DNA from: Salipiger mucosus DSM 16094
GTDB taxonomy: Bacteria > Pseudomonadota > Alphaproteobacteria > Rhodobacterales > Rhodobacteraceae
Assembly: GCF_000442255.1 (NCBI RefSeq)
Contig: NZ_KE557287.1
Span: 1 to 64,000, forward strand
Length of the DNA: 64,000 nucleotides
Reading direction: 5' to 3'
Shown: positions 1 through 13,306 of the stretch, one piece after another
How positions within the stretch are numbered: position 1 is the stretch's first letter
How the letters are laid out: each line of letters starts with the position of its first letter
The notes under the pieces: generated by a model
What the model saw: only the letters and a program-made list of their open reading frames with translations
The model's database searches: none
What the model was told of the DNA's origin: nothing
Made by a program: the position numbers and the translations under genes

Positions 1-815
1 CCCTTGCCCACGTCACCGTAGCCGCAGACCACGGCGACCTTGCCGGCCATCATGGTGTCGGTCGCGCGGCGGATGCCGTCGACGAGCGATTCCTTGCAGC
101 CGTACTTGTTGTCGAACTTCGACTTCGTGACGCTGTCGTTCACGTTGATCGCCGGGAAGGGCAGCTGGCCGCCCTTGGACAGCTCGTAGAGACGGTGCAC
201 GCCGGTGGTGGTCTCTTCCGAGACGCCCTTGAGCATGTCGCGCTGCTTCTTGAAGAAGCCGGGCGTTTCCTTCATCCGCTTGCGGATCTGGGCGAAGAGC
301 GCCTCTTCCTCTTCCGAGCCGGGGTTCGCGATCAGGTCTTCCTCGCCGGCTTCCACGCGGGCGCCGAGCAGGATGTACATGGTCGCGTCGCCGCCGTCGT
401 CGAGGATCATGTTCGATCCGCCCTGGCCGTCACCGTCGAAGTGGAAGATGCGGTCGCAGTAGTCCCAGTAGTCGACCAGCGTCTCGCCCTTCACGGCGAA
501 GACCGGCGTGCCGCCTTCGGCGATCACGGCCGCGGCGTGGTCCTGGGTCGAGAAGATGTTGCAGGACGCCCAGCGGACCTCGGCGCCGAGCGCCACGAGG
601 GTCTCGATCAGGCAGGCGGTCTGGATCGTCATGTGCAGCGAGCCGGCGATCCTGGCGCCCTTGAGCGGCTGGCTGGCGCCGTATTCCTCGCGCAGGGCCA
701 TGAGGCCCGGCATCTCGGTCTCGGCGATGTCCAGCTCCTTGCGGCCGTAGCCGGCCAGCGCGATGTCCTTGACGACGTAGTCGCTCGCCACGTGGGGCAT
801 GTCTTCTGCAGGCAT
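1..815 (-). CDS. ahcY: S-adenosylhomocysteine hydrolase, N-terminal part (cut by window edge)
   Basis: Adenosylhomocysteinase converts S-adenosylhomocysteine to adenosine and homocysteine in the cytoplasm, removing the inhibitory product of SAM-dependent methylation. The protein starts [20 protein letters not shown] and reaches the NAD-binding segment [13 protein letters not shown] at the window edge, so about 270 residues are visible and the C-terminal part is missing. The start at 815 is preceded by AAAGGA; an in-frame ATG at 800 is possible. It is the last visible gene of the methyl-cycle operon, 75 bp after metK, with a strong hairpin in the gap that may lower its expression relative to metK. 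The family assignment is secure. Confidence 0.95.
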
Positions 816-842
816 GTCTTGTCCTTTATCCGATGAAACGAT

Positions 843-867
843 GCCGCCGGGCAGGGTGCCCGGCGGC
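843..867 (-). terminator. Perfect hairpin between metK and ahcY
   Basis: An 11-bp perfect stem (GCCGCCGGGCA with its complement) closes a 3-nt loop. It lies 24 bp after the metK stop and 28 bp before the ahcY start. No long U tract follows, only ATCGTTTC. It could be a weak attenuating terminator or an mRNA-stabilising processing hairpin inside the operon. Confidence 0.5.
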
Positions 868-890
868 AGGTGCATTGCTTGGCGGGCCGG

Positions 891-2080
891 TTACTCGGCC
901 GCGATCTTGTGGCCGAACTCGGCCGCGAGGTCCTTGGCGAGGTCCGTGCGCTCCCAGCCGAAGCCGCCGTCGGCGTCCACCGGGCGACCGAAGTGGCCGT
1001 AGGCCGCGGTGCGCGCGTAGACCGGCTTGAGCAGGCCCATCGTCTCGCGCAGGCCGCGCGGCGTGAGGCGGACCATCTTGCGCAGGGTCGCGCCGAGCTT
1101 CTCCTCGTCGACCTTGCCGGTGCCGAAGGTCTCGACGTAGCGGCGACGGGGTCCGGCACGCCGATGGCATAGGCCAGCTGGATCTGGCACTTGTCGGCGA
1201 GGCCCGCGGCCACGACGTTCTTGGCCAGGTAGCGCGCGGCATAGGCCGCCGAGCGGTCCACCTTGGTCGGGTCCTTGCCCGAGAAGGCACCGCCGCCGTG
1301 GGGCGCCGCGCCGCCGTAGGTGTCGACGATGATCTTGCGGCCGGTGAGGCCGGCGTCACCGTCGGGGCCGCCGATCACGAAGTTGCCCGTGGGGTTCACG
1401 ATCAGCTTGTCGTCGGCCGGCAGGTCCCAGCCCTCGTCCTTGAAGACGCCCTCGATGTAGGGCTTCACCAGCTCGCGGACCTTGTCCTGGCTGACGCCCT
1501 CGAGGTGCTGCGTCGAGACGACGACGGTGTCGACGCCGACGGGCTTGCCGCCCTGGTACTTGAGCGTGACCTGCGACTTGGCGTCGGGGCCGAATTCCGG
1601 CGTCTTGCCGGATTTGCGGTCCTCGGCCATGAGGCGCAGGATCCGGTGCGCGAACTGGATCGGCGCCGGCATCAGCTCTTCGGTCTCGTTGCAGGCGTAG
1701 CCGAACATGATGCCCTGGTCGCCGGCACCTTCTTCGCCCTTGTCGCCCTCGTCGACGCCCATCGCGATGTCCGAGGACTGCGCGTGCAGGCGGTTGACGA
1801 TCTCGACAGTCTTCCAGGAGAAGCCGGGCTGGTCGTAACCGATTTCCTTGACCGCCTCGCGGGCGATCTCCTCGACGCGGCGCAGCACGGACTCGGGGCC
1901 GCGGACTTCGCCGGCGATGGTCAGGTGGTCGGTGGTGGCAAGCGTCTCGCAGGCGACCCGGGCCTCGGGCTCCTCGGCCAGGTAGGCGTCGAGGACCGAG
2001 TCCGAGATGCGGTCGCAGACCTTGTCCGGATGGCCTTCCGACACCGATTCACTGGTGAACAGCCAGGTTTTGTCACCCAT
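891..2080 (-). pseudogene. metK: S-adenosylmethionine synthetase with apparent one-base frameshift
   Basis: MetK makes SAM from methionine and ATP. Signature segments are intact: GHPDK (residues 16-20), [12 protein letters not shown] (about 118-129) and [16 protein letters not shown] (about 263-277). After GVPDPVA (residue 313) the frame is lost. The missing C-terminus ([20 protein letters not shown] and onward, ending at the stop at 891) lies in another frame. The expected codons GTC GCC GTC TAC read GTC GCC G-C TAC, so one base is missing at about 1140/1141. Restoring it gives 396 residues, normal for the family. MetK is usually essential, and both halves are well conserved, so a sequencing or assembly error is the likeliest cause. 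If the deletion is real, another metK must exist elsewhere. It lies 43 bp downstream of metH and has the SD-like GAGGGGG before the start. Confidence 0.9.
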
Positions 2081-2123
2081 TTTGGGTTCCCCCTCTTAGT
2101 TCTGGGATTGGTGCCCGCACGCC

Positions 2124-4792
<2,669 letters not shown>

Positions 4793-4796
<4 letters not shown>

Positions 4797-5866
4797 GCTG
4801 CGCCCTCCTTTGCGGTCGCGGCCGGGGCTTCGAACATCTCCAGTCCGCTCAGGCGCATCTGGCGCACCTTCTGCGGGATCTTGCGGGGAGTCTTGCCCTC
4901 GACGGCCTTGGCGATGGCCCGGATGTGGTCCGGCGTGGTGCCGCAGCAGCCGCCGACGATGTTCACGAGACCGCTGTCGGCCCATTCCGCGAGGTGCGCG
5001 GCGGTCTCTTCCGGCGTCTCGTCGTAGCCGCCCATCTCGTTCGGCAGGCCGGCGTTGGGGTAGGCGCTGACGCGGGTGTCCGCCACCTCGGAGAGGGTGC
5101 GCACGTGCTGGCGCATCTCGCCCGCGCCAAGCGCGCAGTTGAGCCCGATCGAGAAGGGACGCGCGTGGCTCATCGAGACCCAGAAGGCCTCGGGCGTCTG
5201 CCCGGTGAGCGTGCGGCCCGAGCGGTCGGTGATGGTGCCCGAGATCATCAGCGGCGGCACGTCCAGCCCCTCGTCCTTGAGCGAGTCGATGGCAAAGAGC
5301 GCGGCCTTGGCGTTGAGCGTGTCGAAGATGGTCTCGATCAGCAGCAGGTCGGCGCCGGCCTCGATCAGGCCGCGCGCGGCCTCGCCGTAGGCCTTGGCGA
5401 GATCGTCGAAGGTCACGGCGCGGAAGCCGGGGTCGTTCACGTCGGGGCTGATGCTGGCGGTCTGGTTGGTCGGCCCGATGCCGCCCGCGACCCAGCGCGG
5501 CCGGTCCGGCGTCGAGGCGGCATCGGCCGCCTCGCGCGCCAGCCGCACGCTCTCGGCGTTCATCTCGCCGACGAGGTGCTGCATGTTGTAGTCGGCCTGG
5601 CTGACCGAGTTGGCCCCGAAGGTGTTGGTGCACAGGATGTCCGCGCCGGCCTCGAGGAAGTCGGCGTGGATGTCGCGGATCAGGTCGGGCTGGGTCAGGC
5701 TCAGCAATTCGTTGTTGCCCCCGACATCGCCCGAATGGTCCGCGAACCGCGAGCCGCGATAGAACGCCTCGTCGGGTTTCGCCTGCTGGATCATCGTGCC
5801 CATCGCCCCGTCCAGCACGAGGATCTTCCGGGCCGCATGCGCGGCAATGTCAGTGGTATCGGTCAT
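4793..5866 (-). CDS. Methionine synthase, homocysteine-binding subunit of split MetH
   Basis: This 357-residue homocysteine S-methyltransferase domain corresponds to the N-terminal module of MetH. The N-terminal [10 protein letters not shown] and the zinc-ligand cysteines in GLNCALG (Cys244) and GGCCGTT (Cys307, Cys308) are present, so the zinc/homocysteine site looks complete. It must work with the product of the next gene, with which it overlaps by ATGA. It starts 12 bp after metF. Alone it could resemble a betaine-homocysteine methyltransferase, but the overlap with the pterin/B12 subunit makes the split-MetH reading much stronger. Confidence 0.93.
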
Positions 5867-5878
5867 AGGTATTTCCCT

Positions 5879-6757
5879 TCAGGCCGCGCGGTCGGCGCGG
5901 ATCGTCGCCGGCAGTCCCAGCGCGCGGCAGATCGCGAGCGTGACGTCCGGCTTGTTCAGCGTATAGATATGGAACTCCGTCAGCCCCTCGGCAACGAACC
6001 GGCGGCATTGTTCGACCGCCACGCTGGTGGCGACCATCGAACGCAGGTCGGGCGTTTCGTCGAGTCCGGCGAACATCTCTTCCATCCAGGTGGGAATAGA
6101 GGCACCGCAGCCGGACGAAAAGCGCTTGAGGCTCGCGAAGTTGGCAACCGGCATGATGCCGGGCACGATCGGGGCGGAAATGCCTGCCTTCCGGGCACGA
6201 TCGACGAAGCGCAGCACGGTGTCGGTGTCGAACGCATATTGCGTGATCGCCCGGTTGGCCCCGGCGTCGATCTTGCGCTTGAGGTGATCGAGGTCGCCCT
6301 GGTCGCTCGCGGCCTCGGGGTGCACCTCGGGATAGGCGGCGACCGAGATATCGAAATCGCCTATGCGGCGCAGGCCTTCGACCAGTTCGGCGCCGTCGTG
6401 GTAGCCGTCCTCGGCCAGCGTCTCGCCCTCGGGCAGGTCGCCGCGCAGCGCGACGATGCGGCGGATGCCGGCGTCCCAGAGGCCCTGGGCCTGGCGGTCG
6501 ATCTCGGCGCGGCTGGCGCCAACGCAGGTCAGGTGCTGCGCCACGGGCAGGCCCGAGCGGGACGCCACGGCGTCGACCACCTGGCGGGTGCGCTCGCGGG
6601 TCGAGCCGCCAGCACCGTAGGTCACAGAGAAATAGGCCGGTCCGGCCTCGGCCAGCCGGTCAACGGTGTGCCCGAGTTTCTCGATCCCCGCCTCGGTCTT
6701 GGGCGGGAAGAGCTCGAAGGACACCGAGATGTCCCGTTCGGGTGTCTGCCCGGTCAT
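5879..6757 (-). CDS. metF: 5,10-Methylenetetrahydrofolate reductase
   Basis: MetF is a cytoplasmic FAD-dependent TIM-barrel enzyme that reduces methylene-THF to methyl-THF, the methyl donor for MetH. The 292-residue protein begins with a short polar leader and then SVSFELFPPKTEAG, followed by YFSVTYGAGGSTRERT and VALRGDLPEG, all typical of the family at normal bacterial length. It lies between the methyltransferase gene (80 bp upstream) and split metH (12 bp downstream), so methyl-group supply is co-expressed with methyl-group use. Confidence 0.95.
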   Translation of the reverse strand: MTGQTPERDISVSFELFPPKTEAGIEKLGHTVDRLAEAGPAYFSVTYGAGGSTRERTRQVVDAVASRSGLPVAQHLTCVGASRAEIDRQAQGLWDAGIRRIVALRGDLPEGETLAEDGYHDGAELVEGLRRIGDFDISVAAYPEVHPEAASDQGDLDHLKRKIDAGANRAITQYAFDTDTVLRFVDRARKAGISAPIVPGIMPVANFASLKRFSSGCGASIPTWMEEMFAGLDETPDLRSMVATSVAVEQCRRFVAEGLTEFHIYTLNKPDVTLAICRALGLPATIRADRAA

Positions 6758-6836
6758 GAAGGTCTCTCCGTCGTTGGGATCGTCTGTCTGGTTGGTGCCC
6801 GGCCCGCGCGGCTGGCGCGGGCCGGGGTGTCCGGTC

Positions 6837-8522
6837 TTACGCCGGCTTGCGGAAGGTCAGGATGCCCCAGGCGAGGTAGCCGTCGTCGGCCGCCTTGACC
6901 CAGTTCTCGAGACCGACGGCCATCTTGTCGAGGTACTCGGCCGACGAGCCGCCTTCACGCAGCTTGTCGTAGTTCGCCAGCAGTTCCTCGCGGACCCGTG
7001 CGTAGTGGTTGCGCAGCTGGTTGGTCATCTCGTCCAGCTCCACCGTCTCGAAGCCGAGCGCCTCGGCCACTTCGCGGTAGTAGCGGATCGAGCCCAGGCT
7101 GTTCAGCTGCAGGCGGTCGTAGACCGGCTGAAGCACGCCCTGCGGCACGTCGTCGGCCTGCATCGGGTCGGTGAAGATCAGGTGACCGCCCGGCTTGAGC
7201 ACGCGGTACGCCTCGGCGATGACCTTGTCGCGCTGGTCCGAGTGCAGGAAGGCATCCTGGCTCCAGGCCACGTCGACGCTGGCGTCGTCCTGCGGCAGGT
7301 CCTCGAAGACGCCGTGGCGCACCTCGATCTTGTCGCCCAGGCCGGCCTGGCGGATCTTCTGGCGGTTGTAGTCGTTCTGCGTGCTCGAAATGTTGACACA
7401 GATCGCCTCGGCGCCCGTCTGCTTGACCAGCGTGCGCATCGCGCCGCCATAGCCCGCGCCCATGTCCAGCACACGGCTGTCGGCGCCCAGCTTCGGCAGC
7501 TTGTCGATCATCGCGGCGATGGTCTTGTCGCTGGCCTCGCGGATGTTCTTCGTCTCGTCGTAGAGGCCGATGTGCAGGTCTTCGCCGCCCCAGATGGTCG
7601 AGTAGAAGGTGTCGGCGTCGTCACTGTCGTAGTAGTCTTCGGTGACGTCGCGGATGTCCTGCTCGTCCTCGGTGCTGGTGCCGCCCCAGCGCTTCATGTG
7701 CAGCGAGGATTTCTCGGCCACGTGGATGAAGAAGTCCGGGTCGTCCTCGGCGTAGGTTTCCTGGAAGTCGCCGTAGGTGCGGACGCGCTCGAAGCCTGCC
7801 TCGGTGAGCAGCCGACGCATGTAGTTCTTGCGGATCGGGCACATGTTCAGCGTGTAGGAGGCGCCGTCGGGGAAGGTGTAGCGCATGCGGCACAGGCCCT
7901 CGTCGACGTGGTCCGGCTCGGCCGTCACCTGGTCGCCGCAGTAGTAGAACTTGTGCTTGGTCGAATAGCCGTTGTCGATCATCGCGTCGTAGTTGCGCTG
8001 ATCGAGAATGAGGATGCCGTCGTGCTTCAGCGCGGCATAGAACTCGGCCAGCGCGCGGCGGCGGTCCTTTTCCTCGTGCAGGTGGGTGAAGGAGTTGCCG
8101 AGGCAGATGATCGCGTCGTACTTGCCCGCGATGTCGCGGTTCAGCCAGCGCCAGTCGGCCTGCGTCGTCTTGAGGATCAGGCCGCGCGCCTGGCCGTTCT
8201 GGAAGGCCTTGGCGACCATCGCGGCCGAGCCGTCGGCGGCGGTCACGTCGAAGCCGGCCTCGGTCAGGCGCACCGAGTGGAAGCCGGTGCCGCAGGCCAC
8301 GTCGAGCACGCGTTCCTTGCCGCGGGCGCGCAGGATGTCGATGAAGAACTGGCCCTCGCTGGTGGCGCGGCCGTCCCAGTCGATCAGCTCGTCCCACTTG
8401 TCGACGAAGGTCGAGACATACTCCTTGCGGTAGTGGTCCGTTTCACGGTCTGCCAGCGGGTCGTCGCCGTAGACCTGGTCGGTCATCGTGAGCTCGGCGT
8501 TGTCCGTGCTGTAATCCGTCAT
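6837..8522 (-). CDS. Fused glycine/sarcosine and sarcosine/dimethylglycine N-methyltransferase
   Basis: This 561-residue protein has two class I SAM-methyltransferase domains in tandem. The N-terminal one carries VLDVACGTG at residues 72-80 and the C-terminal one VLDMGAGYGG at 351-360, preceded by the SDMT-like FYSTIWGGEDLHIGLY. Separate enzymes of these types (GSMT and SDMT) methylate glycine stepwise through sarcosine and dimethylglycine to glycine betaine, using three SAM. The fusion should perform the whole conversion in the cytoplasm. The start at 8522 is set by AAGGAGGGG; a longer reading to 8681 has no comparable site and a basic, unrelated leader. It is the first gene of an operon with metF, metH, metK and ahcY, which recycles the SAH formed. 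Osmoprotection is the inferred role. Confidence 0.9.
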   Translation of the reverse strand: MTDYSTDNAELTMTDQVYGDDPLADRETDHYRKEYVSTFVDKWDELIDWDGRATSEGQFFIDILRARGKERVLDVACGTGFHSVRLTEAGFDVTAADGSAAMVAKAFQNGQARGLILKTTQADWRWLNRDIAGKYDAIICLGNSFTHLHEEKDRRRALAEFYAALKHDGILILDQRNYDAMIDNGYSTKHKFYYCGDQVTAEPDHVDEGLCRMRYTFPDGASYTLNMCPIRKNYMRRLLTEAGFERVRTYGDFQETYAEDDPDFFIHVAEKSSLHMKRWGGTSTEDEQDIRDVTEDYYDSDDADTFYSTIWGGEDLHIGLYDETKNIREASDKTIAAMIDKLPKLGADSRVLDMGAGYGGAMRTLVKQTGAEAICVNISSTQNDYNRQKIRQAGLGDKIEVRHGVFEDLPQDDASVDVAWSQDAFLHSDQRDKVIAEAYRVLKPGGHLIFTDPMQADDVPQGVLQPVYDRLQLNSLGSIRYYREVAEALGFETVELDEMTNQLRNHYARVREELLANYDKLREGGSSAEYLDKMAVGLENWVKAADDGYLAWGILTFRKPA

Positions 8523-9028
8523 GTGTTTACCCCTCCTTAAGGCCGCATCGTCCCGGCTGGAACGGGACGACCGTTCCACTGGACATTCCGAGGCCGGGCG
8601 CGGTCTTTCGCCGTCGCGCCGATCCCGGGCGTTCGCTTGTTTGTGTCGCGGGCTCTGCCGTGACCGGCGAGCCCCTCGCATGTTCGAAGCATTTCCGCGC
8701 CGTGGCGGTCGCCTCCACGCATTTCCTTAGCGTCTGCGAAGCAGTGTCACGTCGCTGTGACGCGTGGCGGACACTCTGCAGTTTAATTGCGACACTTCAA
8801 GTCCTGTGGCGCCTTGTCATGAAGACTTTTTGTTTTGGCTTACAAACTAATCATTTTCGCGCACGCCTCGAGCAGTTCGCGGAGGCCAGGAGCGTTCAGG
8901 ACGCGCGGGAGAACCCGTCGCGAACCGGCGAATCCACGCGAGTCGGCGCTGCCGGCAGGGTGCCGGGGCCCTTGGCGCCGGGCGGGCAGGGGGCTATGAC
9001 GGTCCACCCGAGACCAGAGGAGCCCGCC
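8523..9028. promoter_or_regulatory. Divergent intergenic region: betaine operon leader and tex promoter region
   Basis: No gene is seen in these 506 bp. On the betaine side are the SD AAGGAGG (8531-8537) and, just upstream, a perfect 7-bp hairpin GGAACGG/CCGTTCC with a 5-nt loop (8559-8577). An inverted repeat GTCAC-N6-GTGAC lies at 8746-8761, beside an AT-rich stretch (about 8779-8860) that probably holds promoters. No recognisable SAM or SAH riboswitch core was found by eye. Confidence 0.5.
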
Positions 9029-11353
<2,325 letters not shown>

Positions 11354-11460: not shown

Positions 11461-11615
11461 CAGTCTTATGGCCGCGCCCGTGATTTCCTGAAGTGGTCTG
11501 CCGGAGTGTTTGCCGCGCCTTATGGGCGCGGTCAGGCCCGGGGCTCCGCCCGTGATTTCCTCAATCGCTCCCCCGGAGCGATTGTCGCGCCCTATGGGCG
11601 CGACCCGGAAATCAC
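11461..11615. repeat. Degenerate 72-bp tandem palindromic repeat
   Basis: Units beginning GTGATTTCCT occur at 11480 and 11552 (period 72), and the remnant CTTATGG-CGCG near 11466 suggests a third partial copy. The second unit is nearly fully palindromic. An outer stem GTGATTTCC/GGAAATCAC (11552-11560 with 11607-11615) encloses two perfect 9-bp hairpins, AATCGCTCC-CCC-GGAGCGATT and GTCGCGCCC-TAT-GGGCGCGAC, giving a three-way-junction shape. Its right arm contains the stop codon of the minus-strand gene. Confidence 0.7.
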
Positions 11616-13306
11616 CCCATCCACCGCCGGACCGGGGCGTTGGATTCCTCAAGCGGCTGGGTCACCACGTCCACCAGCGTCGGGCCGTCGTGCGCCACCG
11701 CCTGCCGCAGCACGCCCTCCAGCTCGGCCGGGTCCTCGACCCGCCAGGACTTGACGCCGTAGGCAGCCGCCACCGCCGCCTGATCGACGCGGTTGAAATC
11801 CACGTTGTAGTAGCGCGCACCCTTGTCGTCCTTCTGGCTCGCCTTGATCCAGCCGTAGCTGGCGTTCGAGAACACCACGAAGGTGATCGGCGCGCGCGAG
11901 CGGCAGACGGTTTCCAGCTCGCCGCAGGTGAAGCCGAAGGAGCCGTCGCCCATCAGCGCCACGGTCTTCGAGGCCGGCCGCCCGTACCAGGCCCCCAGCG
12001 AGGCCGCGAGCGAATACCCCAGCGCCCCGTGCGCGCGGTTGGTCACGAAGTAGCGCCCCGCCAGCTGCTGCTGGTAGTAGGCCGAGGCATAGGGGCAGGA
12101 GGTGCCCGGGTCCGAGACCACGGTGGCATCCTCGGGCAGCACCTTCATCAGGTCCGCGATGACCCGCTCGGGGCGGATCGGCTGGTCGCCCCCGGCCGCG
12201 ATGCGGTCGAAGATCTCGAACTTGCGCCGCTTGATGTCGGCCACCGCCGCCGCGCCGCCGAAGGTGCCCGCGCCCTGGCCGCGCTTGTCGAGCGCCGCGT
12301 TCAGCATCCCCAGCGAGAGCCGCAGGTCGCCCGCGACGCCGACCTCGGTCGGCAGGTTGGCCCCGATCACCATCGGGTCGGAGTCGAAATGCACGATGCG
12401 GGTGCCGACGCTGGGCGCCTCCCACCGCGCGGTGGTGGTCGAGCCCGCCCGGCAGCCCATGAAGACCACGAGGTCGGCGGCCTCCATCATCTCCCAGGTC
12501 TGGTCGGTGCCGCCGTTCGAGCCGACCACGCCAAGCGCGTTCGGGTGCGTGTCGGCCAGCGAGCCCTGGCCCGAGATCGAGGAGGCCACCGCGATGTCGA
12601 GCCGCGTCGCCAGCCGGTCGAGCTCGGCCATGGCGCCCGAGATCACCACGCCGCCGCCGCAGACGATGAGCGGTTTCTTCGCCGAGAGGATCGCGTCGAG
12701 CGCCGCTTCGACGGCGGCCTCTTCGGGGCCGGTGCGATAGGCCGGGTAGGTCGCGAGCGCGGGGTCGGCCCAGATGTCGGCCGGGTCCACCGGGTCGTAC
12801 TGGATGTCGTAGGGCAGCCCGAGGTGCGTCGACCCCGAGCGCCCGGTCGTCATGGCGCGGAAGGCGGTGCGCACCATGCGCGGGATGTGCTCGGCCCGCT
12901 TGATGACGGTGTTCCACTTGGTCAGCGGGCGCATCAGCGCCTCCTGGTCGACCTCGGTCAGGGGATACTTGCCGTAGGAGGCCACCGAGATGTCCGAGGT
13001 GATCGCCAGCGTCGCGTAGGAGCTTTCCGAGCTTTCGATCAGCCCCGGCAGGATGTAGGTCGCGCCGCCGCCCGAGGGCCCCTCGCAGACGCCCGGCCGC
13101 CCGGTCACCCGCGAATAGCCGTCGGCCATGTAGGCCGCGCTGCGCTCGTCGCGCGTCAGCACGTGCGAGATCTCGTGGTCGAGCAGGTGCATCGCGTCGT
13201 AGAAGGGCAGGGTGGTGTCGCCGCAGAGCCCGAAGATGTGCGTCACGCCATGCGCTTCCAGCATCCGCACCATGGCTTCCGCGCCGTTCAGTTTGTTGTC
13301 CAGCAT
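11612..13306 (-). CDS. Thiamine-pyrophosphate enzyme, acetolactate-synthase-like
   Basis: This 564-residue protein has the three-domain layout of ThDP-dependent decarboxylase/acetolactate synthase-type enzymes. The N-terminal pyrimidine-binding domain has the catalytic Glu54 in RDERSAAYMADGYSR, and the C-terminal ThDP domain has GDGSFGFTCGELETV. The middle domain is the usual Rossmann-like one. No regulatory subunit gene follows, and it lies beside a racemase-family gene rather than ilv genes, so a catabolic decarboxylase or carboligase is more likely than valine/isoleucine biosynthesis. The substrate is unknown. It is transcribed downstream of the racemase-like gene, with a TTGTATACAA palindrome 53 bp before its start. 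Confidence 0.85.
   Translation of the reverse strand: MLDNKLNGAEAMVRMLEAHGVTHIFGLCGDTTLPFYDAMHLLDHEISHVLTRDERSAAYMADGYSRVTGRPGVCEGPSGGGATYILPGLIESSESSYATLAITSDISVASYGKYPLTEVDQEALMRPLTKWNTVIKRAEHIPRMVRTAFRAMTTGRSGSTHLGLPYDIQYDPVDPADIWADPALATYPAYRTGPEEAAVEAALDAILSAKKPLIVCGGGVVISGAMAELDRLATRLDIAVASSISGQGSLADTHPNALGVVGSNGGTDQTWEMMEAADLVVFMGCRAGSTTTARWEAPSVGTRIVHFDSDPMVIGANLPTEVGVAGDLRLSLGMLNAALDKRGQGAGTFGGAAAVADIKRRKFEIFDRIAAGGDQPIRPERVIADLMKVLPEDATVVSDPGTSCPYASAYYQQQLAGRYFVTNRAHGALGYSLAASLGAWYGRPASKTVALMGDGSFGFTCGELETVCRSRAPITFVVFSNASYGWIKASQKDDKGARYYNVDFNRVDQAAVAAAYGVKSWRVEDPAELEGVLRQAVAHDGPTLVDVVTQPLEESNAPVRRWMG

What the first reader, a model, noticed from the sequence alone, without database searches (positions are those of the whole stretch)
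1..8522. Glycine betaine synthesis fused to a complete SAM-recycling operon
The gene order is fused GSMT-SDMT, metF, split metH, metK, ahcY, all on one strand with short gaps and overlaps. Each betaine consumes three SAM and releases three SAH; AhcY removes SAH, MetF and MetH rebuild methionine, and MetK remakes SAM. One promoter could therefore set flux through the whole cycle. The enzyme families are known; the tight coupling with a fused methyltransferase is the notable part.
Basis: partly seen in the sequence, partly recalled or inferred. Interest (0 to 1): 0.72.

Follow-up and report, generated by a model that had tools for sequence, protein, structure and literature searches.

The report
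Betaine-making operon with SAM recycling
This bacterium carries a gene cluster that appears to make the salt-protectant glycine betaine together with enzymes that recycle its methyl donor; such clusters are already described, but comparison with relatives suggests that one of its recycling genes is partly overwritten by the cell's own housekeeping copy.

Summary
The cluster is real: on the minus strand lie a fused GSMT-SDMT, metF, a two-gene metH, metK and ahcY, with gaps of 79, 12, -4, 43 and 75 nt. Two corrections: metK carries a frameshift absent from the 43 of 80 related loci where both its parts are seen, and ahcY is cut by the contig end, so 'complete' does not hold for this assembly. 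The arrangement is in print (Imhoff et al. 2020). It is a new member of a known kind, probably acquired horizontally: of 20 genus genomes only this one has it, and it occurs on a plasmid. I add: (1) operon metK separates from housekeeping metK on one branch (100/99). (2) Operon and housekeeping ahcY share mosaic tracts within genomes, a gene-conversion signature; 15 of 19 contigs counted as ending inside the cluster end in ahcY. (3) An element TGTCGC-N9-TTGAA-N2-GTCGC lies about 280 nt upstream of the methyltransferase in 28 of 82 regions, degenerate in the window. (4) Adenosine kinase follows ahcY in 11 of 13 loci with complete ahcY. Function is inferred; nothing was assayed.

The parts
6837..8522 (-). 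fused glycine/sarcosine N-methyltransferase (residues 16-272) and sarcosine/dimethylglycine N-methyltransferase (residues 286-559), 561 aa
   Evidence: NCBIfam NF051855 470 bits (cut-off 350) and NF041675 306 bits (below its cut-off of 550); PDB 5gwx and 2o57; 12 checked MpGSMT positions identical
5879..6757 (-). metF, methylenetetrahydrofolate reductase, 292 aa
   Evidence: PF02219 300 bits, TIGR00676 above cut-off
4793..5866 (-). metH N-part, homocysteine S-methyltransferase domain, 357 aa
   Evidence: PF02574 339 bits; best NCBIfam match is MetH positions 9-354
2124..4796 (-). metH C-part: pterin-binding, two B12-binding and activation domains, 890 aa; overlaps the N-part by 4 nt
   Evidence: PF00809, PF02607, PF02310, PF02965; NF007024 1505.6 bits, above cut-off
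891..2080 (-). metK of the operon type, interrupted by a frameshift at about 1139-1147 (frame one 2080-1148, frame two 1142-891)
   Evidence: TIGR01034 matches both pieces in succession; one open frame in 43 of 43 related loci with both parts; tree
1..815 (-). ahcY, SAH hydrolase, first 271 codons, cut by the contig end; window bases 1-165 match the genome's other ahcY exactly
   Evidence: PF05221 336 bits; contig position; exact match
8789..8814 (-). window copy of the conserved upstream element: downstream part TTGAA-GT-GTCGC at 8800-8789 intact, upstream half (AGGCGC, 8814-8809) degenerate with a spacer one base shorter
   Evidence: alignment of 26 upstream regions; an ungapped scan did not pick this copy (best window match 11 of 16 elsewhere); positions counted on the sequence
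8523..8765 (-). putative untranslated leader of about 240 nt, if the TTGAA is a -35 box; no Rfam match and no exceptional fold (z -1.84)
   Evidence: start of transcription is inferred

Best explanation
A probably horizontally acquired cassette for making glycine betaine from glycine. The fused enzyme methylates glycine three times with SAM (inferred from family and conserved residues). MetF and the two-part cobalamin-dependent MetH remake methionine, a dedicated MetK remakes SAM, and AhcY removes the inhibitor SAH; in most relatives with complete ahcY an adenosine kinase gene comes next and would pull that reversible step by removing adenosine (inferred). The genes are probably one transcription unit (inferred). 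MetK is a paralog that stays separate from housekeeping MetK (shown by tree and identities). AhcY is similar enough in DNA to recombine with the housekeeping copy and is partly overwritten by it through gene conversion (mosaic pattern shown; process and direction inferred). In the present assembly metK is frameshifted, so if that is real the cycle leans on the second metK of the genome.
For: Domains and families. Order conserved in 23 of 80 loci. Patchy: 8 of 295 sampled family genomes, 1 of 20 genus genomes, this one counted in both; and on a 136.7-kb Roseinatronobacter plasmid with replication and partition genes within 12 kb. metK: 29 operon rows against 20 housekeeping rows on one branch, 100/99; op-op identity at least 74.1%, op-hk at most 71.4% over the first 311 codons. 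ahcY: own copies 72.5% identical in codons 121-200, 95.7% in 201-262, 165-nt exact match at the contig edge; Roseivivax jejudonensis 99-100% over codons 241-466 and 80-93% before; run test P 0.0005 (its floor) in 6 of 14 within-genome pairs against P<=0.005 in 3 of 200 between-genome pairs. Adenosine kinase 12-144 nt after ahcY in 11 of 13 loci with complete ahcY, and on the plasmid.
Against: No enzyme, transcript or salt response was measured. The SDMT half scores below its NCBIfam cut-off. 23 of 80 loci have the methyltransferase without these genes although at least 5 kb follow, so linkage is not obligatory. Only the start of ahcY is seen here. The run test is liberal (26 of 200 controls at P<=0.05); 6 of 14 ahcY pairs are not significant at 0.05 (two Chelativorans pairs diverged, four alike throughout the compared part); 4 of 20 metK pairs reach P<=0.006, though with runs of 12-16 codons against 27-116 in the six clear ahcY pairs. 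The window copy of the upstream element is degenerate.
Confidence: 0.85

Rival explanations
1. The cluster is decaying in this strain: metK is broken and the operon no longer supports high-flux betaine synthesis, SAM coming from the housekeeping metK alone.
For: Frameshift absent from 43 of 43 related loci with both metK parts; a second metK with an open frame exists; upstream half of the promoter element is degenerate.
Against: The other genes are open as far as seen; one indel near a contig edge may be a sequencing error; 23 of 80 related loci have the methyltransferase without an adjacent metK, so the pathway can do without a linked one.
Confidence: 0.25
2. The high ahcY identity within genomes comes from separate recent captures of the host ahcY by each operon, not from gene conversion.
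For: In five genomes the copies are 96-100% identical over the part that can be compared (G313, G314, G318, G328, G282); operon ahcY rows do not form one clade.
Against: The own genome, G339, G323, G325, G321 and G331 are mosaics with diverged and near-identical stretches inside one gene; whole-gene capture would give even identity.
Confidence: 0.2
3. The met genes are the housekeeping methionine cycle, to which a betaine gene became attached.
For: In G316 (Tranquillimonas rosea) and G334 (Phycocomes zhengii) the only metK and ahcY found are the operon copies.
Against: In the window genome a separate metK and ahcY exist; 19 congeners without the operon keep one ahcY each; operon metK is a separate group. 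The genome-contig collection holds no contigs under 3 kb, so copies in the two exceptions may be missed.
Confidence: 0.05

Closest known systems
Fused GMT/DMT cluster of Roseivivax roseus DSM 23042 and Roseovarius nitratireducens (Imhoff et al. 2020, PMC7824335)
   Same: Gene order fusedMT-MTHFR-MS-MAT-SAHase; a genome of strain DSM 23042, titled Tranquillimonas rosea, is L017, methyltransferase 84% identical
   Different: In the window metK is frameshifted and ahcY cut; the term adenosine kinase does not occur in the paper's main text, while L017 has that gene after ahcY
Betaine clusters of Actinopolyspora halophila and Halorhodospira (same paper)
   Same: Actinopolyspora: fused methyltransferase with MAT, MS, SAHase and MTHFR; Halorhodospira: GMT-DMT-MAT-SAHase-MTHFR
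   Different: Other order; in Halorhodospira unfused and methionine synthase elsewhere
Betaine synthesizing gene cluster of Methanohalophilus portucalensis
   Same: SAM synthetase, SAH hydrolase, gsmt, sdmt and adenosine kinase together, with a second SAH hydrolase nearby (unpublished data quoted in PMC5201303, passage)
   Different: Archaeal, methyltransferases not fused, no metF or metH named in the passage

Membership tests
Glycine-methylation betaine cluster with fused GSMT-SDMT and methionine-cycle genes | N-terminal GSMT domain with substrate and cofactor residues | tested here: met
   NF051855 above cut-off; 12 MpGSMT positions named in passages of PMC5146677 are identical; three other named ones (23, 24, 28, helix mutation sites) differ in the alignment
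Glycine-methylation betaine cluster with fused GSMT-SDMT and methionine-cycle genes | C-terminal SDMT domain | tested here: inconclusive
   NF041675 E 2.7e-91 over nearly full length, but 306 bits against a cut-off of 550; PDB 2o57 'putative' SDMT E 2.3e-65
Glycine-methylation betaine cluster with fused GSMT-SDMT and methionine-cycle genes | SAM-cycle genes directly downstream on the same strand | tested here: met
   same order in 23 of 80 loci
Glycine-methylation betaine cluster with fused GSMT-SDMT and methionine-cycle genes | All SAM-cycle genes intact in this genome | tested here: not met
   metK frameshift; ahcY cut at the contig end
Glycine-methylation betaine cluster with fused GSMT-SDMT and methionine-cycle genes | Three methylations of glycine; induction by salt | not testable with these tools
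   needs enzyme assay and expression data
Split cobalamin-dependent methionine synthase | Homocysteine domain in one protein; folate, B12 and activation domains in the next | tested here: met
SAM- or SAH-riboswitch-controlled SAM-cycle operon | Known SAM/SAH riboswitch upstream | tested here: not met
   no Rfam match at gathering score in the window and two unrelated ones at E up to 5 in bases 1-9300; in 7 of 80 relatives scanned the one SAM/SAH-type match is SAM_alpha about 7 kb upstream in L043
SahR regulon | 20-bp SahR palindrome upstream | not tested
   the palindrome letters were not read; passages of PMC4239095 give SahR in 2 of 15 Rhodobacterales genomes studied

The most novel reading that the evidence does not exclude
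The betaine cassette is a mobile methyl-cycle module whose parts evolve by different rules: its MetK stays a dedicated isoenzyme, while its AhcY is repeatedly overwritten by the resident housekeeping copy through gene conversion, and the module often carries its own upstream element (TGTCGC-N9-TTGAA-N2-GTCGC), found beyond chance nowhere else in the genomes searched, as it crosses bacterial orders.
Probability: 0.55. Interest if true: 0.5.

Novelty: new member of a known kind. Interest (0 to 1): 0.35.

Why it matters
The cluster itself is ordinary for salt-tolerant bacteria. The comparison suggests an acquired operon recombining with the host genome at one gene but not at another. It also shows that assemblies tend to break at that gene, so surveys may under-report it: Roseivivax halodurans JCM 10272 is tabulated as fusedMT-MAT, but the contig held here ends inside ahcY. 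The conserved upstream element gives a concrete target for finding out how betaine synthesis is switched on.

Tried and rejected
Riboswitch control: no Rfam match in the window at the gathering threshold, two unrelated weak ones at E<=5 in bases 1-9300, none just upstream of the methyltransferase in 7 relatives. RNA structure in the leader: z -1.84, not pursued. ChvI or CenR as regulator of the upstream element: the motifs given in passages (TTGC-N3-GCAA; TGA-N8-TGA) do not resemble it by eye. A regulon of that element: with up to 2 mismatches 96 places in 30 genomes against 81 for the reversed control pattern; by my count of the list 18 of the 96 are the betaine operon, and with up to 1 mismatch 15 of 17 are. 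Empty insertion site: upstream neighbours of tex from 9 congeners were fetched and compared with each other; not pursued further. A sigma-70 consensus scan found nothing in 1-9300, and 8 terminator-like sites against 4.9 expected, the one on the minus strand inside metF. Pfam scans of 20 of the 95 other long window ORFs gave ordinary metabolic, transport or regulator families for 8 and nothing for 12. No structure prediction was run.
Full report
WHAT IS THERE. The window is bases 1-64000 of contig C15 of a 5.69-Mb, 30-contig genome. On the minus strand lie the fused methyltransferase (8522-6837, 561 aa), metF (6757-5879), metH N-part (5866-4793), metH C-part (4796-2124), metK (from 2080) and ahcY (from 815, cut at the contig edge). 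Domain and family searches agree with these names. The N-terminal half of the methyltransferase matches the solved GSMT of Methanohalophilus portucalensis (5gwx, E 9e-118) and the C-terminal half a putative SDMT (2o57, E 2.3e-65). Twelve positions of MpGSMT named in passages of PMC5146677, most of them for cofactor, substrate or betaine contacts, are identical here; three others named there as helix mutation sites (23, 24, 28) differ in the alignment. The SDMT half stays below its NCBIfam cut-off, so its naming rests on similarity.

TWO CORRECTIONS. metK is split between two frames: 311 codons, then the last 83 in another frame, with 8 nt between matched points. In the 43 of 80 related loci where both parts are seen the spacing is 9 or 12 nt and the frame is open. 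Whether this is a mutation or a sequencing error cannot be told from one assembly. ahcY is cut after 271 codons. The genome has other copies: metK on C6, ahcY on C3, metF-like genes on C12 (49%) and C10 (43%), and a homocysteine methyltransferase on C8 (33%).

ALREADY KNOWN. Imhoff et al. 2020 (PMC7824335, passages only) list fusedMT-MTHFR-MS-MAT-SAHase in Roseivivax roseus DSM 23042 and Roseovarius nitratireducens, a fused gene with methionine-cycle genes in Actinopolyspora halophila, and GMT-DMT-MAT-SAHase-MTHFR in Halorhodospira, and explain the coupling by methyl supply and SAH removal. PMC5201303 (passages) quotes unpublished data on a cluster with SAM synthetase, SAH hydrolase, gsmt, sdmt and adenosine kinase in Methanohalophilus, and reports GSMT inhibition by SAH with I50 of 37-70 uM. 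A metH/metH2 pair is also familiar: PMC4239095 names both as core SahR-regulon genes in Proteobacteria (passages); that metH2 is the split form seen here is my reading.

DISTRIBUTION. Of the 80 loci kept (501 confirmed), 16 show MT-metF-metH-metH-metK-ahcY, 7 the same as far as metK, 5 lack metF, 13 have MT-metK, 4 MT-metK-ahcY, 3 show only metF or metF-metH before the locus ends, 23 have the methyltransferase without these genes although at least 5 kb follow, and 9 have too little downstream to tell. The methyltransferase is in 8 of 295 sampled genomes of the family and in 1 of 20 of the genus, this genome counted in both. On a 136.7-kb plasmid of Roseinatronobacter sp. S2 it is followed by metF, metK, ahcY and adenosine kinase, with a single DNA match to window 984-6727 that spans the metH genes, and replication and partition genes lie within 12 kb. 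In the metK tree the Chelativorans operon copies sit among Rhodobacterales operon copies while their housekeeping copies are far apart. All this fits horizontal transfer. Adenosine kinase starts 12-144 nt after ahcY in 11 of 13 loci with complete ahcY and on the plasmid; L051 and L079 lack it, and L049 has it after metK without ahcY. The window ends before that point.

METK. In 20 genomes with both copies fetched, operon and housekeeping MetK are 63-70% identical over the first 311 codons. Over all pairs op-op is at least 74.1% and op-hk at most 71.4%. 29 operon rows and 20 housekeeping rows separate on one branch with support 100/99 (unrooted). In G316 (Tranquillimonas rosea) and G334 (Phycocomes zhengii) only the operon metK and ahcY were found, with the caveat that short contigs may not be held.

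AHCY. Here the picture is different. Operon and housekeeping labels are interleaved in trees of three parts of the gene (11, 10 and 9 changes). In the own genome the two copies are 89.7% identical in codons 1-120; 72.5% in codons 121-200, where the operon copy is closest to the operon copy of Roseivivax jejudonensis (83.3%); and 95.7% in codons 201-262, where its closest match is its own genome's housekeeping copy, itself 95.2% identical to that of a congener. In the tree of codons 201-262 the two own copies pair with modest support (89/69), in that of 121-200 they are far apart. The first 165 bases of the window match the housekeeping gene exactly, which would explain why the contig stops there. 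In R. jejudonensis, where both copies lie on one 1-Mb contig, codons 241-466 are 99-100% identical and earlier parts 80-93%, and the DNA match ends within a few bases of the gene's end. The run test covered the 14 genomes in which one search showed two or more ahcY matches (duplicate handles left out). P is 0.0005, the floor of 2000 shuffles, in 6 of 14 pairs and below 0.01 in two more. Of the other six, two Chelativorans pairs are diverged (one of them, G337, compared over 104 codons only because its operon copy stops matching at residue 106), and four are alike throughout the compared part. Between-genome controls, 200 drawn from 1316 pairs, reach P<=0.005 in 3 and P<=0.05 in 26, so the test is liberal. 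metK pairs reach P<=0.006 in 4 of 20, with runs of 12-16 codons against 27-116 in the six clear ahcY pairs. Gene conversion is the simplest reading; the direction, housekeeping to operon, is an inference from the own genome only.

ASSEMBLY CONSEQUENCE. I counted contigs that hold cluster genes after the methyltransferase and end between metF and the end of ahcY: 19 (18 of the 80 loci and the window), of which 15 end in ahcY, about 19% of that length (binomial P 3.6e-8; loci are not independent). L066, which ends 577 bases after metF with no metH match, was left out; with it 15 of 20, P 1.2e-7. L015 and L067, which end 1.2-1.3 kb after metK without an ahcY match, were also left out. 8 of 37 handles searched, four of them evident duplicates, show no ahcY at E<=1e-30; one further locus, L024, could not be searched. 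Six of the eight were inspected and their operon contigs end inside the start of ahcY, as expected if near-identical copies collapse into short contigs; the seventh (G327, L030) ends inside metK, and the eighth (G233) has no operon metK. One of the six is R. halodurans JCM 10272, tabulated in print as fusedMT-MAT; I did not see which assembly the authors used.

UPSTREAM ELEMENT. Alignment of 26 chosen upstream regions showed TGTCGC-N9-TTGAA-N2-GTCGC. Of 82 regions (80 loci, the plasmid, the window) 28 match at least 14 of 16 positions, against 0 of 1640 block-shuffled controls. The consensus came from part of the same set, but regions outside the alignment match too (L072 16, L031 15, L040, L061, L062 and L100 14), several of them with the methyltransferase alone. 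Among the 33 regions with at least 13 matches the element starts 269-362 nt upstream of the methyltransferase. In 30 genomes searched with up to 2 mismatches there are 96 places against 81 for the reversed control; with at most 1 mismatch 17 places, of which 15 are the operon itself, and none in the 6 congeners without the operon. The window copy has the downstream part intact and the upstream half degenerate; the scan did not pick it. TTGAA may be a -35 box; no clear -10 consensus emerged, and the promoter reading is inference. Two GTCGC units 21 bp apart would face the same side of the helix and could bind a regulator; none is identified.

VERDICT. A sound observation of an ordinary, published kind of cluster, in a genome where it is not shown complete. 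The fresh content lies in the comparison: separate metK, homogenised ahcY and the upstream element. Searches for gene conversion with ahcY or SAH hydrolase and for promoters with GSMT and SDMT (12 of 13 papers listed) showed no title or opening of an abstract that describes these; those papers were not read for this point.

Noticed in passing
window 1139-1147: Frameshift inside operon metK, absent from the 43 related loci that show both parts.
   Followed up: partly
L064 (Roseivivax halodurans JCM 10272), last 116 bases: Contig ends inside the start of ahcY just after metK, so the published fusedMT-MAT cluster of this strain is probably truncated by the assembly.
   Followed up: partly
window 8789-8814; L018 and others about 280 nt upstream of the methyltransferase: Direct-repeat element TGTCGC-N9-TTGAA-N2-GTCGC, in the genomes searched hardly seen outside the operon; regulator unknown.
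   Followed up: partly
L032 16452-17639: Operon metK of Maritimibacter harenae is 94% identical to the window's while its methyltransferase is 79% and metF 70%, which hints at exchange of single genes between operons.
   Followed up: no
L017 and L047 (genomes G316, G334): Operon metK and ahcY are the only copies found in these genomes.
   Followed up: partly
L052 from about 9221: Operon ahcY of Chelativorans xinjiangense stops matching at residue 106 although 3.7 kb of contig follow; broken gene or assembly error.
   Followed up: no
L061, L073: Bins labelled Anaerolineae and Competibacteraceae hold a methyltransferase 74-78% identical to the window's; either transfer or misbinned contigs.
   Followed up: no
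L043 2616-2693: SAM_alpha riboswitch match about 7 kb upstream of the betaine operon in Rhodosalinus sediminis.
   Followed up: no
window 8660-11353, 11612-13306: Divergent tex gene (likely start near 8996) and a thiamine-diphosphate enzyme beside it; no tex match was found in the 80 related loci, so neither seems tied to the operon.
   Followed up: partly
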